Part shown: piece after piece, positions 1 to 47,856 of the stretch
Numbering within the stretch: position 1 is the stretch's first letter
Layout: each line of letters starts with the position of its first letter
Assembly (NCBI RefSeq): GCF_006716425.1
Contig: NZ_VFOZ01000001.1
Coordinates: 4,650,001 to 4,714,000, forward strand
Source: Actinoallomurus bryophytorum
GTDB taxonomy: Bacteria; Actinomycetota; Actinomycetes; Streptosporangiales; Streptosporangiaceae
Direction: 5' to 3'
DNA length: 64,000 nucleotides
Program-made: the position numbers and the translations under genes
Notes under the pieces: generated by a model
What the model was told of the DNA's origin: nothing
Database searches by the model: none
The model's input: only the letters and a program-made list of their open reading frames with translations

Positions 1-1057
1 ATGAGGTCGGGCTTGCCGTCCCCGGTGAGATCGCCGATGCCGGTGAGCTCGGCCATGCCGTTCCAGCCACTCGTGCCGATCTCGATGCGGGTGCCCAGGG
101 TGTTCGTGTCGCCGGGGTAGAGCCACAGCGTCCCGTCGGCCGTCTTGGTGGCGACCAGGTCGGGCTTGCCGTCCCCGGTCAGGTCACCGATGCCGGTGAG
201 GTCGGCCATGCCGTTCCAGCCGCCCGTGCCGATGAGGCGCCGGTCCGCGGCGGCGAACGTCGGGCCGGGGTAGAGCCACAGCTGCCCGCTCGCCCGGTCG
301 GCCGCGACCAGGTCGGCGGTGCCGTCACCGGTCTGGTCGCCGAGACTCGCCAGATCGGCGTCGGTGTGGCCGGTGACCGTGTACATGCCGCTCGCCTGCA
401 TGTCCGCGGCGAGGCTGGTGGCCGCGATGGTGTGCGCGCCGCCCGTGGCCTTCCACGGATCCCAGACGGTGATCGTCCCGGCGGCGCTGTCGTAGCCGTA
501 CGCGATGATCGCGTGGCCGACCTTGCTGCCGCTCATGCCCGCGTTCCAGGGCAGCTTCTCCATCCACACGCCGAGGATGGGAGCCCGCTTCAGCACGCCG
601 ACGTCATAGGAGACCTGCGACATCATGCTCGACGCCGTCGAGGCGTCGGAGAAGCCGTAGCTGTAACCGAGCGGGTCCACGTAGCCGTTGACGACGGGGA
701 GCGCCTGGTTGCCGTACGTCCCGTTCGCCGCGGTGGTGCCCATCGCCGTCGCGAGCGTGTCCTGGCTGACGGAGACCCCGAAGGTGGACAGACTCATCGC
801 CGCCGACGTGGGGACGCAGTTGTAGTTGGTGTCCTGGTACTGGCCGGTCAGCGACAGCTTCCCCGAGGCCGGAGCCGCGGCCGTCGCCGACCTCGCGAGC
901 TTGGGCGCCATGGTGGAAGGGGTCGGGTGGACGACGGCGTCGCCGGGGGTGGTATCGACGCGTCGGCCGCCCGTGCCGTTCCCGTCACTCCAACGGCCGC
1001 CAGGGCGAGTGCGACCGCCGGGGCCACCAACGGCAGGCGCCGGCCGAACGACTTCAT
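1..1057 (-). CDS. secreted C39-like peptidase with FG-GAP/VCBS repeats (partial, frameshifted)
   Basis: The gene runs off the left edge. Reading leftwards from ATG 1057 there is a clear Sec signal peptide ending in TARA-ADA. About 35 residues on, the reading frame changes. The body is open from about position 950 to the window edge. It carries a papain-like peptidase_C39_2 domain, with the presumed catalytic Cys in NYNCVPTSAAMS, the His in VGHAIIAYG and then WDPW. After it come at least two near-identical FG-GAP units (GMADLTGIGDLTGDGKPDL). One extra base in the G5 run at 945-949 would join signal peptide and domain, giving ADASIPPPGDAVV. Without it the body could only start at an internal ATG at 911 and would lack a signal. 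It is probably an extracellular cysteine peptidase or peptidase-like adhesin; the substrate is unknown. Confidence 0.7.
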
Positions 1058-42523: not shown

Positions 42524-43726
42524 ATGACGTACACCGCCGACCCCGAAGCTCTGGACCGCGCCCGCGCGCTGCTCGCCGGCCACCCCGTGGTGGACGGGCA
42601 CAACGATCTCCCGTGGGCGCTGCGGATGGAGGCCGGGTACGACCTCGACCGGTTCGACATCGCGACCGACCAGACCGGACGCCTGCACACCGACCTGGCA
42701 CGCCTGCGCGCCGGTGGCGTCGGCGCGCAGTTCTGGTCGGTGTACGTGCCGTCCTCGCTGCAGGGCGACAGCGCGGTCAGCGCGACGCTGGAGCAGATCG
42801 ACTGCGTACACGCGCTGGCGGCGCGCTACTCGGGCGACCTGCGTCTCGCGCTGACCGCCGACGACATGGAGGCGTCGTGGGCCGACGGCCGGATCGCGTC
42901 CCTGATCGGTGCCGAGGGCGGCCACTCCATCGCGAGCTCGCTGGCGACGCTGCGCGGCCTGTACGCGCTGGGCGTCCGCTACATGACGCTCACCCACAAC
43001 GACAACGTGCCGTGGGCGGACTCCGCCACCGACGAGCCGGCCGCGAACGGCCTCACCCGCTTCGGCGAGGAGGTCGTACGCGAGATGAACCGGCTGGGCA
43101 TGCTGGTCGACCTGTCACACGTCGCCGCCGACACCATGCGGGACGCGCTGCGCGTCACCCGCGCGCCGGTGATCTTCTCGCACTCGTCCTCACGCGCCGT
43201 CTGTGACCATCCGCGCAACATCCCGGATGACGTGCTGTCCCTGCTGCCGGCCAACGGCGGCCTGGCGATGGCGACGTTCGTGCCGAAGTTCGTCCTGCCC
43301 GAGGCCATCGAGTGGAGCCGGGCGGCCGACGCCAACATGCGAGCCAACGGCCTGGACCACCTGGACACCTCGCCGGAGGCGATGAAGGTGCACCAGGCGT
43401 TCGAGGCCGACAACCCCCGGCCGGTGGCGACCCCCGCGACGGTCGCGGACCACCTCGACCACATGCGCGAGGTGGCCGGCATCGACCACATCGGCATCGG
43501 CGGCGACTTCGACGGCACCGCGTTCACACCGGACGGTCTCGACGACGTCTCCACCTACCCGAACCTCATCGCGGAGCTGTTCGGCCGCGGCTGGACCGAG
43601 GCCGAGCTGGCCAAGCTCACGTGGGGCAACGCGGTACGCGTGCTGCGGTCCGCCGAGGACGCGGCACGCGAGCTGAGCCGCACCGAGAAGCCGTCCATCG
43701 CGACGCTCGAGCAACTGGACGGATAG
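42524..43726 (+). CDS. membrane dipeptidase family (peptidase M19)
   Basis: The 400-residue metallopeptidase of the renal dipeptidase family has the zinc-binding and catalytic landmarks [53 protein letters not shown] and [13 protein letters not shown]. No signal peptide is visible, so it is probably cytoplasmic. Family members cleave dipeptides, often with D-residues. ATG 42524 is set by the family N terminus. Confidence 0.93.
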
Positions 43727-44276
43727 GAGCGGCTTCTCCGATACACGGTGCCGTGTCGCAGAGCGTGTTCGAGATCTGGTTCGCGACCGGATGACGGTCG
43801 TGGCTTGAGCGGGCGCCCCTCGAAGACGAGTGTCGCCGGGGACACCCAGAAGCTGAAGCGCTTCTCTGGTGGGAGCGGATGGACCCAGCGGACGATGTAG
43901 TCGAGGTCGAGCAGCAGGCGTGGCAGAACGGCATCGGTGTGCTGCACGTACAGGCCGTGTGGGCCGCCATCACCACCATGTCTCGATGCCCTTGGCCCGC
44001 GGTCATCCGGTAACCCGCCCCGGACCTCGAACCCTGGAACACATCCACTGAGACCAGTTCAATACGCTCTCAGTCTTCGCCGTGACAGAGGCGCAGCTCG
44101 CGGCGTGCCTGCCGGCGCCCGCAGCGGCGCTCTTCGCGCCGGAAGTCCTGCCACTCACGGCCCCCACTGACCCTACCGCGGACGAACAGGTAGTAGTCGA
44201 CGCTACGCGAGCCGCAGGTGACGGGGAACCCGTTCGGCCGCCGGCGCATCCCATTCGTGTACGCCGGTTAAATACG
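43727..44276. other. degraded intergenic region
   Basis: About 550 bases between the dipeptidase and the tRNA array promoter. I see no intact gene. Two fragments on the minus strand look like remnants: the one at 43796-43980, and a frame near 44075-44225 reading SVDYYLFVRGRVSGGREWQDF and ending at a stop. The region may be a scar of past insertion or deletion. Confidence 0.4.
43796..43980 (-). pseudogene. fragment of a conserved hypothetical protein
   Basis: A minus-strand frame reads GLYVQHTDAVLPRLLLDLDYIVRWVHP followed by RFSFWVSPATLVFEG. This resembles a compact protein family in actinomycetes with the DLDYIVRWV / FSFWVxPATLVF pattern. After that the sequence loses character, and no good start is present. 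It is probably the N-terminal part of a broken gene. Confidence 0.35.
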
Positions 44277-44304
44277 TTGCTCTCGGCGGGATGGGCCATA
44301 GAAT
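44277..44304 (+). promoter_or_regulatory. promoter of the leader/tRNA array
   Basis: TTGCTC (44277-44282) and TAGAAT (44299-44304) with a 16-base spacer. Transcription would begin near 44311, about 28 bases before the leader peptide start and about 160 before the first tRNA. Confidence 0.5.
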
Positions 44305-44338
44305 GGAAGCAAGAGATCGGGCAAGGAGGGGATCGCAC

Positions 44339-44416
44339 GTGAATACCGCACTATGGCATCTGTCGCAGCGCATGCGATATGAGCTGCGTGCTGTCCTCGC
44401 GGAGACCTCCGGGTAA
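44339..44416 (+). CDS. 25-residue leader peptide
   Basis: A short frame starts at GTG 44339, eight bases after AAGGAGGG, and ends at TAA 44414. The peptide has one Trp and several Arg/Leu (ALWHLSQRMRYELRAVL). Promoter, strong ribosome site, short peptide and then a terminator hairpin are the parts of a translation-sensing attenuator. What it would sense is unknown. The first tRNA behind it carries a Trp anticodon. Confidence 0.55.
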   Translation: MNTALWHLSQRMRYELRAVLAETSG

Positions 44417-44436
44417 GGCATACCGCCTGATCGGAG

Positions 44437-44471
44437 GCCGCCTGAGGACAACGTCCCAGGCGGCTTTTCTT
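44437..44471 (+). terminator. intrinsic terminator with a competing upstream arm
   Basis: GCCGCCTG (44437-44444) pairs with CAGGCGGC (44457-44464). The stem extends inside by GGAC/GTCC and is followed by TTTTCTT (44465-44471). A second CCGCCTG at 44423-44429 could pair with the same 3' arm. CCTCCG (44406-44411) can pair with CGGAGG (44432-44437). The alternatives are mutually exclusive, as in attenuators. Confidence 0.75.
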
Positions 44472-44543
44472 ATGGGTGAGCCAGCGGATAGGCGACCGGT
44501 TTCCAAGTCCGGCGGAATGCGGGTTCGACTCCTGCCGCCCATG
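44472..44543 (+). tRNA. tRNA-Trp (CCA), array member 1
   Basis: Acceptor ATGGGTG/CGCCCAT, anticodon loop TTCCAAG giving CCA, T arm GCGGG-TTCGACT-CCTGC. Position 8 is A instead of T and the anticodon stem has one T-T pair, so it is slightly degenerate. It begins one base after the terminator T tract. Confidence 0.7.
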
Positions 44544-44628
44544 CATTGCCTTCTCGTTTCGGCGATGGCACGTGAATTGACAACTCAACAGCGCGCTGAT
44601 TACGCGCGGCCTTCGTGTGCCGCGCCCT

Positions 44629-44701
44629 GCCTCTGTAGCTCAGTGGAGAGAGCGCCCGCTTGCGGAGCGGGAGGCCCCAGGTTCGAGTCCTGGCGGAGGT
44701 G
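44629..44701 (+). tRNA. tRNA-Arg (GCG), array member 2
   Basis: Well-formed cloverleaf: acceptor GCCTCTG/CGGAGGT, T8-A9, D stem CTC/GAG, perfect anticodon stem CCCGC/GCGGG with loop TTGCGGA, T arm CCAGG-TTCGAGT-CCTGG. The GCG anticodon is rare in bacteria, where CGN codons are normally read by ACG (inosine). Confidence 0.85.
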
Positions 44702-44707
44702 CTGCGT

Positions 44708-44779
44708 TCCCGGGTCGTCCAGTCGGAAGGACACGTGATTCTGGATCACGAGAGCGAGGTTCGAATCCTTGCCTGGGAG
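44708..44779 (+). tRNA. tRNA-Gln (CTG), array member 3
   Basis: Acceptor TCCCGGG/CCTGGGA, D stem GTCC/GGAC, anticodon stem CGTGA/TCACG with loop TTCTGGA, T loop TTCGAAT. The fold is intact; it starts six bases after member 2. Confidence 0.85.
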
Positions 44780-44783
44780 CTCC

Positions 44784-44852
44784 GCCGCCGCACACGGCTT
44801 GTGACCCCGCCCTCGTAAGGCGGGCGGCCCGGGTCGGCACCGGGTGGCGGCT
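44784..44852 (+). tRNA. tRNA-Thr-like (CGT), array member 4, degenerate loops
   Basis: Acceptor GCCGCCG/TGGCGGC and anticodon stem CCGCC/GGCGG with loop CTCGTAA are sound. The D arm is minimal (CAC/GTG) and the T loop is GTCGGCA instead of TTCRANT. It may be a decaying or minimal tRNA. Confidence 0.45.
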
Positions 44853-44856
44853 TTGA

Positions 44857-44929
44857 ACGCTCGTAGCCCAATCGGCAGAGGCACCGGCCCGAGGAGCCGG
44901 AGGTGCGGGTTCGAGTCCCGCCGAGCGTA
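44857..44929 (+). tRNA. tRNA-Leu-like (GAG), array member 5
   Basis: Perfect acceptor ACGCTCG/CGAGCGT, T8-A9, anticodon stem CCGGC/GCCGG, T arm GCGGG-TTCGAGT-CCCGC. The loop CCGAGGA has C instead of T at position 33. The variable loop is short although leucine tRNAs normally have a long one, so the charging identity is open. Confidence 0.7.
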
Positions 44930-44939
44930 CGGATTTCTT

Positions 44940-45012
44940 GCCGCCATAGCCCAACTGGTAGAGGTGTCGCGCTCAGAACGCGAAGGTCAAGGTTCGAATC
45001 CTTGTGGCGGTA
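44940..45012 (+). tRNA. tRNA-Leu-like (CAG), array member 6
   Basis: Acceptor GCCGCCA/TGGCGGT, T8-A9, anticodon stem TCGCG/CGCGA with loop CTCAGAA, T arm CAAGG-TTCGAAT-CCTTG. The anticodon reads CUG (Leu), but the variable loop is the short class I type. Confidence 0.75.
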
Positions 45013-45027
45013 CTACGTGCAGGTCAT

Positions 45028-45099
45028 GGCCCCTTCGACTACGGGTTAGGTTCCGGGGTTCTCAACTCCGGGGAGCGGGTTCGAGTCCCGCAGGGGCTA
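45028..45099 (+). tRNA. tRNA-Glu (CTC), array member 7
   Basis: Acceptor GGCCCCT/AGGGGCT, anticodon stem CGGGG/CTCCG with loop TTCTCAA, T arm GCGGG-TTCGAGT-CCCGC. The D stem has a mismatch. Confidence 0.8.
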
Positions 45100-45104
45100 C
45101 GCGA

Positions 45105-45180
45105 AGCGCAGTGGGGGAGCTCGGCCGTCCCCGTCGGTTTCATACGCCGAAGATCGTGGGTTCGAATCCCACCTGCGCCA
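45105..45180 (+). tRNA. tRNA-Met (CAT), array member 8
   Basis: Anticodon loop TTCATAC in stem TCGGT/GCCGA, D stem GGGG/CCCC, T arm GTGGG-TTCGAAT-CCCAC, acceptor AGCGCAG/CTGCGCC. The first acceptor pair is an A-C mismatch, as in initiators, but the three G-C pairs of an initiator anticodon stem are not all present. Elongator, initiator or Ile2 cannot be decided. Confidence 0.75.
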
Positions 45181-45184
45181 CTGG

Positions 45185-45255
45185 TCCGGTGTCATCCAAC
45201 GGCAGGATGCGCGGTTGTTACCCGCGTAATGCTGGTTCGAGTCCAGCCGCCGGAG
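45185..45255 (+). tRNA. tRNA-Asn (GTT), array member 9
   Basis: Acceptor TCCGGTG/CGCCGGA, D stem ATCC/GGAT, anticodon stem CGCGG/CCGCG with loop TTGTTAC, T arm GCTGG-TTCGAGT-CCAGC. Fully formed. Confidence 0.88.
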
Positions 45256-45266
45256 CGTGTTCTCCC

Positions 45267-45339
45267 GCCCTCGTAGCTCAGTGGACAGAGCGCCCGCCTC
45301 CGAAGCGGGAGGCCGCCGGTTCGACTCCGGCTGAGGGTA
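45267..45339 (+). tRNA. tRNA-Arg (CCG), array member 10
   Basis: Acceptor GCCCTCG/TGAGGGT, T8-A9, D stem CTC/GAG, anticodon stem CCCGC/GCGGG with loop CTCCGAA, T arm GCCGG-TTCGACT-CCGGC. It closely resembles member 2, suggesting duplication within the array. Confidence 0.88.
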
Positions 45340-45364
45340 CAGCGGCCCCCCGACGGGACGCCGT

Positions 45365-45437
45365 GGTGTTCATGGTGCAACGGCAGCACACCGGGTTGTG
45401 GTCCCGGAGATGGTGGGTTCGATTCCCCCTGATCACC
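45365..45437 (+). tRNA. tRNA-His (GTG), array member 11
   Basis: Acceptor GTGTTCA/TGATCAC with one mismatch, an extra G at -1 facing C73 as histidine tRNAs require, D stem GTGC/GCAC, anticodon stem CCGGG/CCCGG with loop TTGTGGT, T loop TTCGATT. Confidence 0.8.
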
Positions 45438-45441
45438 CTGA

Positions 45442-45523
45442 GCATGGGCCTGGTCACCGGTGAGACCAAGCGGCTGTAAACCGCCCGCTTCGCGCTGTGC
45501 AGGTTCGACTCCTGCCCCATGCA
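45442..45523 (+). tRNA. tRNA-Tyr (GTA), array member 12
   Basis: Perfect acceptor GCATGGG/CCCATGC, D stem GGTC/GACC, anticodon loop CTGTAAA, a long variable arm (CCGCTTCGCG region) as expected for bacterial tyrosine tRNA, and T arm GCAGG-TTCGACT-CCTGC. Confidence 0.85.
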
Positions 45524-45602
45524 CGTACCGCGGCTCACCGGACCGAGCACCCGGCTGCGAACCGGGGGACTCCCACGGGAAAGGTTCTCCGCTGTGCGTG
45601 CT
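45524..45602 (+). other. tRNA-like remnant after the array
   Basis: A D-like arm GCTC/GAGC and an anticodon-like arm CCCGG-CTGCGAA-CCGGG (GCG) are present. No TTCRANT T loop follows, and the best acceptor pairing would overlap the end of the tyrosine tRNA. It is probably a decayed thirteenth member. Confidence 0.35.
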
Positions 45603-45682
45603 GGAGTGAACCGTCAGACGTTCGGCTCCGTATGCCGAAAGGGGGCAGGTGTGCAGCACCCCACGGCGAAGGGAGCCAGGCG

Positions 45683-46285
45683 TTGATATCGGACAGGTCG
45701 CCGAGCGCGCGTGCCCAGTGGCAGGCCTGCCGGGCGAAGACCCGCTGTGCGCGTGGTGCCCGGTTTGTGACTGGGGCGGACATCGTCCGGATCTCTCGTG
45801 CGCTTGCCTTGGAACCATGGCATTTCACGCAGACCGCGCCCGCCGTGGCCGGCGACCCCACGGGAATCGTCCTCGACAAGGGTCGGCGCCGGGTCTTCCT
45901 CAAGCTTGCCAACGCCACTCACGGGTGCGTCTTTTCGGTCCGTACTCCCAGCGGCGTCAGCTGCTGCGGCCTTGGAGACATCGCACCGATCTCTTGCCGG
46001 ATCTTCCCGGCCGACACGAAGGACGGCGCCCCGGTGATACGTCCCGAGCCCGGAGATGACGGCCGGGAGTGGAAGCTGGAGGATCTGGACCAGGAGGCGC
46101 TGACCGAAGCCCTGCGCACCTGGTCGGCCGACCGCGACCAGTGGTTCGAGATCGTGGCGCGGTGGAACGCGCTGGCGGCCGAGTCCGGCTCGGAGTCCGA
46201 CATCGAGGACTTCCAGCGCTATCTGCTCGAGGCGGTGACGGCCCGCACGGCCGGCGCCGCGTGGCCAGAGGAGGCGACGGCGTGA
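45683..46285 (+). CDS. YkgJ-type cysteine-cluster protein A
   Basis: The roughly 200-residue protein has the pattern ACRAKTRCARGARFVTGADIVRISRALALEPWHF followed by GCVFSVRTPSGVSCCGLGDIAPISCRIFPA. This is the Zn/Fe-chelating YkgJ-like family with Cys residues in both halves. TTG 45683 is proposed because GGGAG lies eight bases upstream and the N-terminal Cys pair is kept; GTG 45767 would remove it. Its stop overlaps the start of the next YkgJ-type gene (GTGA), so the two are probably made together. The function is unknown. Confidence 0.75.
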   Translation: MISDRSPSARAQWQACRAKTRCARGARFVTGADIVRISRALALEPWHFTQTAPAVAGDPTGIVLDKGRRRVFLKLANATHGCVFSVRTPSGVSCCGLGDIAPISCRIFPADTKDGAPVIRPEPGDDGREWKLEDLDQEALTEALRTWSADRDQWFEIVARWNALAAESGSESDIEDFQRYLLEAVTARTAGAAWPEEATA

Positions 46286-46854
46286 ACGGCAGTGGTGCCA
46301 ATGTCGCCGGCTGTGCCGACTGCGGTGGCAAATGCTGCCGCTCGTACGTCGTCGGGGTGACCGCCAGGGATGTCCGGGTGCTCGCAGACGGAGCCGCCAT
46401 GGATCCGGGCGACTTCGTCAGGCTGATCGACACCGACAAGGAGGGCTTCCGCCTTCGGGCGGGCGGGCCCGCGAAGAAACTCTGCCTGCAGCGCATACCG
46501 GAGACCGGCGCCTGCGTGCTCCTCATGGAGATCGCTTCCGGCAAGGCCCGGTGCGGTGTTTACGCCCACCGTCCGCTGGTGTGCAGCAACTTCCCCACGA
46601 GCCTTGAGAACGGCGGGGTGACGATCCGGAAGAACATGGCCTGCGGCCCCGACTCCTGGAACCTCGCCACGATGGACCTTCCCGCCTACCGTCGCGACCT
46701 CATCCGTGACGAAGAGGCACGGGCCGAACACCGAAAGATCATGCGGGCGTGGAACAAGCGCGTCGATGCCTCCAGCCGCGAAGCGACGCCCGAGGATCTT
46801 TACGAATATCTGATGAACCCCCCGCTCGAAGCGGAGCAAGGTCACAAAGACTGA
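46282..46854 (+). CDS. YkgJ-type cysteine-cluster protein B
   Basis: The 190-residue protein has the full N-terminal motif CADCGGKCCRSYVVGVTARDV and further Cys at KLCLQR, GACVLL, ARCGVYAHRPLVCSNFP, typical of YkgJ-like metal-chelating proteins. The GTG start overlaps the stop of protein A. Such proteins may bind iron-sulfur or zinc; no enzyme activity is assigned. A paired arrangement with a diverged partner suggests a heterodimer (inference). Confidence 0.85.
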   Translation: MNGSGANVAGCADCGGKCCRSYVVGVTARDVRVLADGAAMDPGDFVRLIDTDKEGFRLRAGGPAKKLCLQRIPETGACVLLMEIASGKARCGVYAHRPLVCSNFPTSLENGGVTIRKNMACGPDSWNLATMDLPAYRRDLIRDEEARAEHRKIMRAWNKRVDASSREATPEDLYEYLMNPPLEAEQGHKD

Positions 46855-46875
46855 ACCGCGGCGCCGTACGAGGAG

Positions 46876-47856
46876 TCAAAGGTGCGGCGGCAGTCCGAAC
46901 AGGGAGAACAGGCCTCCGGTCTCGATGAAGTAGTGGAGTCCCGTGATCCGGTCGCCGGTCAGCTCGAGGACGTGCACCGAGAAGGGCTCGAACCGGCCGC
47001 CCGGGCCGCTGGGGCGGTATTGCCCGAACGCGGGGGAGGAGTTCGCCGCGATCGGGACCAGGCGTGAGCCCTCGCACTCGATGCCGGGTCCGCTCCACCA
47101 CGCGCGCATGCGTTCGGGGCCGCGCATCCACAGGTCGTACGGCGGCATCGACTGGGTCGCCTCCTCGTGCAGCAGCGACACCAGGGAGTCCAGGTCGTAC
47201 CGCTCGAACGCGTCGACGTAGCGCGTGACCAGCTCGCGTTGCGTGTCGTCCATCGGCCGGACCGGGTCGGAGTCGCTGACGCCGCGCTCGCCGAGCGTGG
47301 AACGGGCTCGCTGGAGCGCGCTGTTGACCGACGCGGAGGTGGTGCCGAGCAGCTCGGCGACCTCTTTGGCCGTCCAGCGCAGCACCTCCCTCAGGATCAG
47401 CACCGCCCGCTGCCGGGGCGGCAGGTGCTGCAGCGCGGCGACGAACGCGAGGCGGACCGTCTCACGGGACACGGCCTGCTCGGCCGGGTCACCGCCGGCC
47501 GCCGCCAGGACACTGGAGTCGGGGACCGGCCCGACCCACGTGGTCTCGGCGAGCGGCGGGCCGAGCGGGGAGTCGGGGGCCCAGGCGGGACCCAGGTCGA
47601 TCGGGCGCGCACGGCGCTGCCGCCCCTTGAGCAGGTCGAAGCACACGTTGGTGGCGATGTGGTAGAGCCAGGACCGCAGCGCGGCGCGCCCTTCGAAGCG
47701 ATGGAGGCCGCGCCACGCGCGTACGAGCGTCTCCTGTACGGCGTCCTCGGCCTCGAAGGCCGACCCGAGCATCCGGTAGCAGTAGCCGGTCAGCTCGACC
47801 CGGTGCTGCTCCAGCTCCTCGAACCGGTGTGATGTGCCGCTCACGGTCTCGCTCAT
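46876..47856 (-). CDS. ECF sigma factor with C-terminal SnoaL-like domain
   Basis: The 326-residue protein has sigma region 2 (GYCYRMLGSAFEAEDAVQETLVRAWRGLHRFEGRAALRSWLYHIATNVCFDLLKGR), region 4 (LPPRQRAVLILREVLRWTAKEVAELLGTTSASVNSALQRARSTL) and a C-terminal SnoaL-like domain (VTRYVDAFERYDLDSLVSLLHEEATQSMPPYDLWMRG). This layout (TIGR02960, similar to mycobacterial SigG) uses the extra domain in place of an anti-sigma factor. ATG 47856 is chosen from the family length. Confidence 0.92.
   Translation of the reverse strand: MSETVSGTSHRFEELEQHRVELTGYCYRMLGSAFEAEDAVQETLVRAWRGLHRFEGRAALRSWLYHIATNVCFDLLKGRQRRARPIDLGPAWAPDSPLGPPLAETTWVGPVPDSSVLAAAGGDPAEQAVSRETVRLAFVAALQHLPPRQRAVLILREVLRWTAKEVAELLGTTSASVNSALQRARSTLGERGVSDSDPVRPMDDTQRELVTRYVDAFERYDLDSLVSLLHEEATQSMPPYDLWMRGPERMRAWWSGPGIECEGSRLVPIAANSSPAFGQYRPSGPGGRFEPFSVHVLELTGDRITGLHYFIETGGLFSLFGLPPHL

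What the first reader, a model, noticed from the sequence alone, without database searches (positions are those of the whole stretch)
44472..45523. Dense array of 12 tRNA genes, every anticodon starting with G or C
Twelve cloverleafs (Trp, Arg-GCG, Gln, Thr, Leu-GAG, Leu-CAG, Glu, Met, Asn, Arg-CCG, His, Tyr) lie in about 1.05 kb on one strand. All twelve have G or C at anticodon position 34, so all read codons ending in C or G. Normal chromosomal tRNA genes are not packed like this. tRNA arrays of this kind are known from phages and from mobile or plasmid-borne units in actinobacteria and other bacteria. Here no phage or conjugation genes are visible, but the region just upstream is degraded. 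The array may supplement decoding of the preferred GC-ending codons, or be a relic of an element.
Basis: partly seen in the sequence, partly recalled or inferred. Interest (0 to 1): 0.85.

Follow-up and report, generated by a model that had tools for sequence, protein, structure and literature searches.

The report
tRNA array with inventory-matching leader peptide
A cluster of spare transfer RNA genes sits behind a tiny test gene whose amino acids match the transfer RNAs in that cluster, so the cell could make the spares only when it fails to read the test, probably because those transfer RNAs have run short.

Summary
The array is real: ARAGORN of the 12 claimed tRNAs (not Thr). It is an accessory, divergent set; the all-G/C wobble pattern is incidental. 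The sensing part of the leader holds all ten amino acids served by the array and only two others. A second array in the genome has a leader spelling a different set, fitting its own tRNAs. Across the family, leader composition tracks its own array (44 non-redundant loci: 0.586 against 0.117 shuffled, 0/5000), only in the true frame, and in 16 of 18 scorable within-genome swaps. Two-tRNA arrays (Met, Arg) have leaders such as MRIRRRMTMPGWARM. Eight plasmid arrays in Micrococcales, serving 18-20 amino acids, have 43-52-residue leaders; seven use all 20 amino acids, and no other of 5,110 short ORFs scanned does. I infer ribosome-mediated attenuation that releases a rescue tRNA set when matching charged tRNAs are scarce. 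My searches found no description in print. Expression and function are untested.

The parts
44268..44304 (+). WblC/WhiB7-type promoter: TTAAAT-ACG-TTGCTC-16-TAGAAT
   Evidence: By reading: 11 of 13 against the published consensus GAAAWY-3-TKGMNN-16..19-TANNNT. Same type scores 11 or more in 65 of 82 loci against 1.4% of shuffles
44323..44329 (+). Shine-Dalgarno sequence AAGGAGG of the leader ORF
   Evidence: score 7
44339..44416 (+). Leader ORF (GTG start, 25 codons, TAA): MNTALWHLSQRMRYELRAVLAETSG
44342..44389 (+). Sensing codons N T A L W H L S Q R M R Y E L R; hold all ten array amino acids (Thr counted), plus A and S
   Evidence: hypergeometric 3.6e-4
44393..44411 (+). 5' strand of the proposed antiterminator (GTCCTC-GCGG-AGA-CCTCCG), last leader codons
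44432..44449 (+). 3' strand of the proposed antiterminator (CGGAGG-CCGC-CT-GAGGAC), overlapping the 5' arm of the terminator
44437..44471 (+). Intrinsic terminator: 12-bp stem with one bulged A, then TTTTCTT
   Evidence: folds. The generic scan did not report it
44472..44544 (+). tRNA-Trp(CCA)
   Evidence: Rfam 28.5 bits, cut-off 29
44577..44591 (+). boxA-like element TTGACAACTCAACAG (own rrn leaders: TTGAGAACTCAACAG)
44629..44702 (+). tRNA-Arg(GCG)
44708..44780 (+). tRNA-Gln(CTG)
44784..44852 (+). Thr(CGT)-like sequence, not called by ARAGORN or Rfam
   Evidence: by eye; conserved in two relatives
44857..44930 (+). tRNA-Leu(GAG), 74 nt
44940..45013 (+). tRNA-Leu(CAG), 74 nt
45028..45100 (+). 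tRNA-Glu(CTC)
45105..45181 (+). tRNA-Met(CAT)
45185..45256 (+). tRNA-Asn(GTT)
45267..45340 (+). tRNA-Arg(CCG)
45366..45438 (+). tRNA-His(GTG)
45442..45524 (+). tRNA-Tyr(GTA)
45528..45600 (+). Degenerate tRNA-like stretch; relative G006 has Arg(TCG) here

Best explanation
A tRNA rescue operon controlled by ribosome-mediated transcription attenuation. The leader ORF is a test message whose sensing codons call for the amino acids of the tRNAs encoded downstream. When those charged tRNAs are available the ribosome runs to the stop codon and covers the 5' strand of the antiterminator (the last leader codons); the terminator forms and the array stays off. When one of them is scarce the ribosome stalls upstream, the last codons pair with the 5' arm of the terminator, and RNA polymerase reads on into the array. 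A boxA-like element after the first tRNA would help polymerase through the untranslated rest, and a WblC/WhiB7-type promoter would add a general translation-stress input. The tRNAs made would let the ribosome finish the leader again, closing a feedback loop. Shown by computation: leader ORF with ribosome-binding site, terminator hairpin, covarying leader-terminator pairing, promoter type, and the match between each leader and its own array. Inferred: the sequence of events, the promoter's regulator, the boxA role, and loss of tRNA (rather than amino-acid starvation) as the natural signal.
For: Window leader: 16 sensing codons use 12 amino acids including all 10 of the array (Thr counted), hypergeometric 3.6e-4; second array 8 of 9, 9e-3. 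Swapping these two leaders gives -0.28 and -0.30 against 0.73 and 0.71 for the own arrays. Family: 82 scored loci 0.612 against 0.196 (sd 0.029) shuffled; 44 non-redundant 0.586 against 0.117 (sd 0.040), 0 of 5000. Frame control, 89 loci: 0.623 in frame, 0.075-0.194 in the other five frames. Within-genome swaps: own better in 16 of 18 scorable pairs. Met+Arg arrays have leaders MRTRRRMSMPGQARM, MRIRRRMTMPGWARM, MRLRRRMNMPRWARM. Eight plasmid arrays in two other families: seven leaders use all 20 amino acids, and of 5,110 short ORFs scanned only those seven do. Leader-terminator helix: 7 of 7 pairs have changes on both sides, 90.6% of cells paired, 47 sequences. Folds: antiterminator -31.1, terminator -25.2 kcal/mol. 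Promoter type in 65 of 82 loci; WhiB7-like ORF in the genome.
Against: No expression data. Close leaders show no third-position excess of substitutions (68/78/79): the residue set is kept, not the peptide. Matching at the codon-anticodon level is significant only for Leu, which may reflect clades. In the window the minimum-energy fold keeps a short leader helix together with the terminator, so exclusion rests on the longer pairing. RNAalifold on the 47 sequences keeps only 5 pairs, and that alignment was fitted to the model. 5 of 91 examined places have no tRNA downstream; 4 of 91 have no leader ORF by my rules. Arrays of G001, G007 and G008 lack such a leader (read). boxA-like TTGACAANT occurs in only 24 of 83 loci. 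The WblC-type promoter is not recognisable at the eight plasmid arrays (7-10 of 13). Three plasmid arrays do not fit exactly: A. caoxuetaonis leader lacks Cys while a Cys tRNA lies about 9 kb past the array, and in two Curtobacterium arrays Phe (and in one also Val) tRNAs were not found though the leader has these residues.
Confidence: 0.87

Rival explanations
1. General ribosome-stalling sensor: the leader responds to translation-targeting antibiotics as WhiB7-type upstream ORFs do, and its amino-acid content is unimportant.
For: WblC/WhiB7-type promoter in 65 of 82 loci; WblC of S. coelicolor directly controls six tRNA genes (PMC7157823, passages).
Against: Does not explain why leader residues match the array's own tRNAs, or fail in other frames and swaps.
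Confidence: 0.07
2. Amino-acid starvation attenuator: the leader senses charging, and the extra tRNAs serve growth under limitation.
For: Matching is mostly at the amino-acid level, not the codon level.
Against: More uncharged tRNA would not relieve starvation (inference); a sensor of up to 20 amino acids is not specific.
Confidence: 0.15
3. The array is a decaying relic of a mobile element and the leader match is inherited, not selected.
For: Larger arrays on plasmids; degenerate Thr and terminal members.
Against: Leaders differ in sequence while keeping the match in 44 non-redundant loci and between two arrays of one genome; promoter and pairing are kept.
Confidence: 0.05
4. Chance or composition artefact of short GC-rich ORFs.
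For: Single loci are only moderately significant (3.6e-4 and 9e-3).
Against: Frame, shuffle and swap controls; all-20 leaders unique among 5,110 short ORFs.
Confidence: 0.01

Closest known systems
Ribosome-mediated transcription attenuators of amino-acid operons (trp, his, leu leaders; recalled, from no call)
   Same: Short ORF with ribosome-binding site, control codons, competing antiterminator and intrinsic terminator before the first structural gene.
   Different: The regulated genes are tRNAs; the leader carries from 2 up to all 20 amino acids, and its set follows the downstream tRNA set.
trn operon of Anabaena sp. PCC 7120 (26 tRNAs on a megaplasmid)
   Same: Accessory tRNA operon, silent normally, turned on by translation stress and favouring survival (PMC10272220, passages).
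   Different: Controlled by the repressor TrcR; 'attenuat' and 'leader' do not occur in the main text.
tRNA array units of Mycobacterium genomes and M. avium linear plasmids
   Same: Dense, redundant, divergent tRNA arrays in actinobacteria (PMC5966550, abstract start in a listing and passages; PMC12803027, abstract, passages, introduction and section 3.1).
   Different: M. avium units hold 26-27 tRNAs and an HNH gene; this one has 11 called tRNAs. 'Promoter', 'leader' and 'attenuat' occur in neither main text.
WblC/WhiB7 regulon of Streptomyces coelicolor
   Same: Promoter type; tRNA genes among the targets (PMC7157823, passages).
   Different: The passages seen describe no leader-peptide attenuator matched to tRNA content.

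Membership tests
Ribosome-mediated transcription attenuator | Short leader ORF with start codon and Shine-Dalgarno sequence before the structural genes | tested here: met
   44339-44416 with AAGGAGG; leader ORF in 87 of 91 examined places
Ribosome-mediated transcription attenuator | Control codons correspond to what the operon supplies | tested here: met
   at the amino-acid level, at the codon level only for Leu
Ribosome-mediated transcription attenuator | Intrinsic terminator with T tract and a competing pairing that involves the leader ORF | tested here: met
   in the window exclusion relies on the longer pairing
Ribosome-mediated transcription attenuator | Read-through rises when the cognate charged tRNA is scarce | not testable with these tools
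   No expression data
WblC/WhiB7 regulon | AT-rich motif 3 bp upstream of -35, spacer 16-19, TANNNT | tested here: met
   65 of 82 score at least 11 of 13 against 1.4% of shuffles; the window has 4 of 6 in the GAAAWY part. Not recognisable at the eight plasmid arrays
WblC/WhiB7 regulon | WhiB7/WblC binding or dependence | not testable with these tools
   Only a WhiB-family ORF ending KRPRGRPRKNAEVAA was found; that this is a WhiB7 AT-hook is by resemblance to the description in PMC3905903
rRNA-type boxA antitermination | boxA sequence in the transcript | tested here: inconclusive
   14 of 15 bases as in the own rrn leaders; TTGACAANT in only 24 of 83 loci. The name boxA is recalled
Actinobacterial tRNA array unit | Dense accessory tRNA cluster redundant with other tRNAs of the genome | tested here: met
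Actinobacterial tRNA array unit | 26-27 tRNAs for 19-20 amino acids with an embedded HNH gene (M. avium types) | tested here: not met
   11 called tRNAs, 10 amino acids with Thr; members too closely spaced to hold such a gene
T-box | Rfam T-box match | tested here: not met
   None among 18 matches at E up to 1 in 43500-47000

The most novel reading that the evidence does not exclude
These leaders are inventory peptides: short genes whose only job is to be read, holding codons for each amino acid whose tRNA the operon can replace, up to all 20. They turn loss of any single tRNA, for instance through tRNA-cutting toxins of competitors, phage infection or the cell's own toxin-antitoxin systems, into expression of a divergent, possibly cleavage-resistant replacement set, with shut-off once the set is restored. 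Leader content evolves by gain and loss in step with the array, in at least three actinobacterial families, on chromosomes and plasmids.
Probability: 0.5. Interest if true: 0.95.

Novelty: new variant of a known kind. Interest (0 to 1): 0.9.

Why it matters
Why bacteria and plasmids carry redundant tRNA arrays, and when they express them, is open; PMC12803027 says the role of the array unit is unknown (introduction). If leader and array are matched as shown, each array announces which tRNAs the cell expects to lose, and one reporter construct can test it. It would be the first case I know of (recall, not a search result) in which attenuation controls tRNA genes and in which one leader peptide samples up to all 20 amino acids. 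The residue-set rule is a simple signature for finding more such operons.

Tried and rejected
Led little way: the generic promoter and terminator scan found nothing. My own hairpin finder returned nothing for the window because it stops 60 bases before the end of the stretch; the terminator rests on the folds. Nearest plasmid and phage DNA hits mostly covered single tRNAs. The second RNA model in the wider class hit 13 of 394 genomes: 7 have arrays, while 2 of the same family (G028, G112) and all 4 from other families have no tRNA near the hit and are taken as false. The boxA-like pattern in named genomes gave 28 stretches, 7 of them actinobacterial with arrays. Codon-level matching fails except for Leu. 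Third-position substitutions show no coding constraint. A Curtobacterium antiterminator is not clear. Of nine plasmid loci, the ninth (Streptomyces halstedii, L272) had two tRNAs and no such leader. Four of the eight plasmid leaders were found with a query that included a leader, so they are not an independent sample. Fetched but not analysed for leaders: L249 beyond the ORF scan and a hairpin scan, L266, L273, L276 (the phage). Rejected: GC-codon supplementation, T-box, dead relic, chance.

Rows dropped: of 104 places listed I examined 91 (the 13 weakest, E from 0.00155 up, were not fetched); one of the 91, G218 contig 2, was represented by the named plasmid record L061, which has the same leader. 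From the scores, 8 of 91 were left out (no leader ORF or fewer than two array amino acids) and one array covering all 20 cannot be scored: 82 left. One search adds seven loci (89 scored) and leaves 2 of 20 within-genome pairs unscorable. ORF counts include nested starts and overlapping loci.
Full report
OBSERVATION. ARAGORN of the 12 claimed tRNAs at 44472-45524. Ten window copies exceed the Rfam tRNA cut-off in the whole-genome search; Trp is just below it in the local scan (28.5 against 29). The Thr copy is called by neither; I recognise it by eye and by conservation in two relatives. The genome (9.47 Mb, 3 contigs) has 47 further tRNA sequences outside its two arrays, for all 20 amino acids; the 11 members are 58-73% identical to their closest same-amino-acid relative. 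So the array is accessory. The G/C wobble pattern is not a rule: the second array (10 tRNAs, L062) has five U34 anticodons.

WHAT LIES UPSTREAM. Reading 44260-44480 shows in order TTAAAT-ACG-TTGCTC-16-TAGAAT; AAGGAGG; a 25-codon ORF MNTALWHLSQRMRYELRAVLAETSG*; and a hairpin followed by TTTTCTT that ends where tRNA-Trp begins. Leader end plus terminator (44384-44473) folds better than all 200 shuffles (z -4.06). The residues before the last eight are N T A L W H L S Q R M R Y E L R. The array, Thr counted, serves W R Q T L E M N H Y: all ten are there, with only A and S besides. The relatives G003 and G006 still have a Ser tRNA in the array, so the S may mark a lost member (inference).

RELATIVES. 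The same array lies in G003 and G006 of the same genus. Their contigs agree in length with records of Actinoallomurus iriomotensis NBRC 103681 and 'Actinomadura sp. DC4' that carry the boxA-like pattern. Their leaders are MNTAHWQMSQGTRYELLHVLLRGSSG and VNTERWLTSQRYELHSVLLMGASG. The genome's second array (Ala Gly Pro Lys Thr Lys Arg Glu Asp Cys) has VTYATTAKPCGLAKECDEPVGASG: K, P, C, G and D appear; W, H, M, N, Q and R do not, although the array has one Arg. A 35-tRNA array on a Nonomuraea plasmid has VISKAAQMQPCRQPWHSALFGDAIAPRQASG.

SURVEY. A covariance model of eight leader ends with terminators hits 84 of 341 genomes of the family, 18 of 68 genera. Of 104 places listed I examined 91: 87 have a leader ORF by my rules, 86 at least one tRNA downstream, 84 at least two. 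Five have no tRNA (L162, L174, L184, L193, L202); Rfam finds none there either.

THE TEST. Score per locus: fraction of array amino acids present in the leader minus fraction of the other amino acids present, without the start codon and the last seven residues. 82 loci: 0.612 against 0.196 (sd 0.029) with leaders shuffled among loci. 44 loci with leaders under 55% alike: 0.586 against 0.117 (sd 0.040), 0 of 5000 as high, 43 of 44 positive. Keeping all residues or dropping four gives 0.502 and 0.556, also 0 of 5000. With 89 loci the true frame scores 0.623 and the other five frames of the same DNA 0.075-0.194. Within genomes, own pairing beats the swap in 16 of 18 scorable pairs from 16 genomes with two or more arrays; the two failures (G217, G218) are paralogues with similar leaders. 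By amino acid (non-redundant set), A, G, L, P and Q are in the leader whenever the array has the tRNA; R, T, V, I, F and S are not significant. Three genomes with only Met and Arg in the array have leaders MRTRRRMSMPGQARM, MRIRRRMTMPGWARM and MRLRRRMNMPRWARM.

BEYOND THE FAMILY. Plasmids of Arthrobacter (2), Paenarthrobacter and Pseudarthrobacter (2) (Micrococcaceae) and Curtobacterium (3) (Microbacteriaceae), found by similarity, have a 43-52-residue ORF before the first Trp tRNA of an array, followed by a strong hairpin. In the stretches fetched, these regions have 32-37 distinct anticodons for 18-20 amino acids; protein genes are interspersed, and whether each is one transcript is unknown. 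Seven of the eight leaders use all 20 amino acids, for example MSALTIQHRDSGRTLRAAMPLNGEWSQNHCATPSYQLFAKVNTV; that of A. caoxuetaonis lacks only Cys, and its only Cys tRNA lies about 9 kb beyond the other members. In two Curtobacterium regions Phe (and in one also Val) tRNAs were not found although the leader has these residues. I scanned 5,110 short ORFs (25-55 codons, Shine-Dalgarno score 4 or more, nested starts included) in all DNA then held: exactly seven use all 20 amino acids, and all seven are these leaders; 37 use 19 or more; random 46-mers reach 20 in 0.1%. The eight are not independent: tblastn links the Curtobacterium three, and three of the Micrococcaceae. Of the six records hit there, one has the leader annotated (hypothetical protein), four have no feature there, and one has no annotation at all.

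MECHANISM. In the window the end of the ORF (44393-44411) can pair with 44432-44449, which holds the 5' arm of the terminator; folded alone this gives -31.1 kcal/mol, the terminator -25.2. In 47 family sequences the central helix has changes on both sides at all seven pairs and 90.6% of cells paired, and the whole structure exceeds 500 shuffles and all slid versions; that alignment was fitted to the model, and RNAalifold on it keeps only five pairs, all with changes on both sides. This is the geometry of classical attenuation: a ribosome at the stop codon masks the 5' strand and the terminator forms; a ribosome held upstream leaves it free and the antiterminator forms. The minimum-energy fold of the window leader keeps a short version of the helix together with the terminator, so exclusion rests on the longer pairing. 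In the Micrococcaceae plasmids the last codons (CCGAAGC or close variants) complement GCTTCGG in the terminator arm over 7-8 bases (in L268 by my reading, where the script lists another 7-base match).

OTHER INPUTS. The promoter fits the published WblC consensus (PMC7157823, passages) at 11 or more of 13 positions in 65 of 82 loci against 1.4% of shuffles. The genome encodes a WhiB-family ORF ending KRPRGRPRKNAEVAA, like the AT-hook described for WhiB7 (PMC3905903, passages). The plasmid arrays show no such promoter. TTGACAAMTSMACAG occurs twice in the genome, once per array; all three rrn leaders have TTGAGAACTCAACAG. An antitermination role is plausible here, but only 24 of 83 loci have TTGACAANT. 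A/T-ending codons are 7 of 14 in the window leader against 10.6% in ten nearby ORFs (p 2.6e-4), which may slow decoding.

SIGNAL. What depletes the tRNAs is not shown. Since the product is tRNA, loss of tRNA is a more sensible trigger than starvation (inference); matching mostly at the amino-acid level does not separate the two.

SURROUNDINGS. The neighbours are a membrane dipeptidase (M19), a CxxCxxCC protein and a sigma factor with a SnoaL-like domain among others; of eight ORFs tested, none matched a phage or conjugation family. The dipeptidase end is also next to the array in G003 and G006 (by reading).

NOVELTY. My searches of the open library for tRNA arrays or operons with leader peptides or attenuation listed no such description; I saw only listings, except for the papers named. 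The Anabaena trn operon is stress-induced but repressor-controlled (PMC10272220, passages). The mycobacterial array papers do not use the words leader, promoter or attenuat-. Rfam matched no leader family in 43500-47000. Most subscription papers are not in the library, so absence from print is not proven. I file it as a new variant of ribosome-mediated attenuation: known machinery, a new regulated product, and a new rule that the leader mirrors the array.

Noticed in passing
L062 1380-2548 (G000:C1:2656379-2657547): Second tRNA array of the same genome with its own leader, terminator and boxA-like element, spelling a different amino-acid set.
   Followed up: yes
window 44857-45013 and family arrays: Array Leu tRNAs are mostly short (74-77 nt; 49 of 55), with no room for the usual long variable arm; three of five non-array Leu tRNAs of the genome (CAA, TAA, TAG) are also called at 74-77 nt.
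   Followed up: partly
window 44629-44702: Arg-GCG, an anticodon absent from the 47 non-array tRNAs, which read these codons with ACG; it would not need A34-to-inosine editing (recalled).
   Followed up: no
L193 and L202 (G004, G201): Leader-like ORFs at model hits but no detectable tRNA downstream: arrays lost, or another regulated gene.
   Followed up: partly
L084, L085, L095 (G007, G001, G008): tRNA arrays of the same genus or family with a WblC-type promoter but no leader like those above (read).
   Followed up: no
L276 (Streptomyces phage Faust 62000-85000): Phage tRNA region annotated with RNA ligase, polynucleotide kinase, a Ro-like protein and a tmRNA, which would fit defence against tRNA cleavage.
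   Followed up: no
L250 5509-6570 and L282 5667-6728: Curtobacterium plasmid arrays include an annotated RNA ligase gene, again suggesting tRNA damage as the threat.
   Followed up: no
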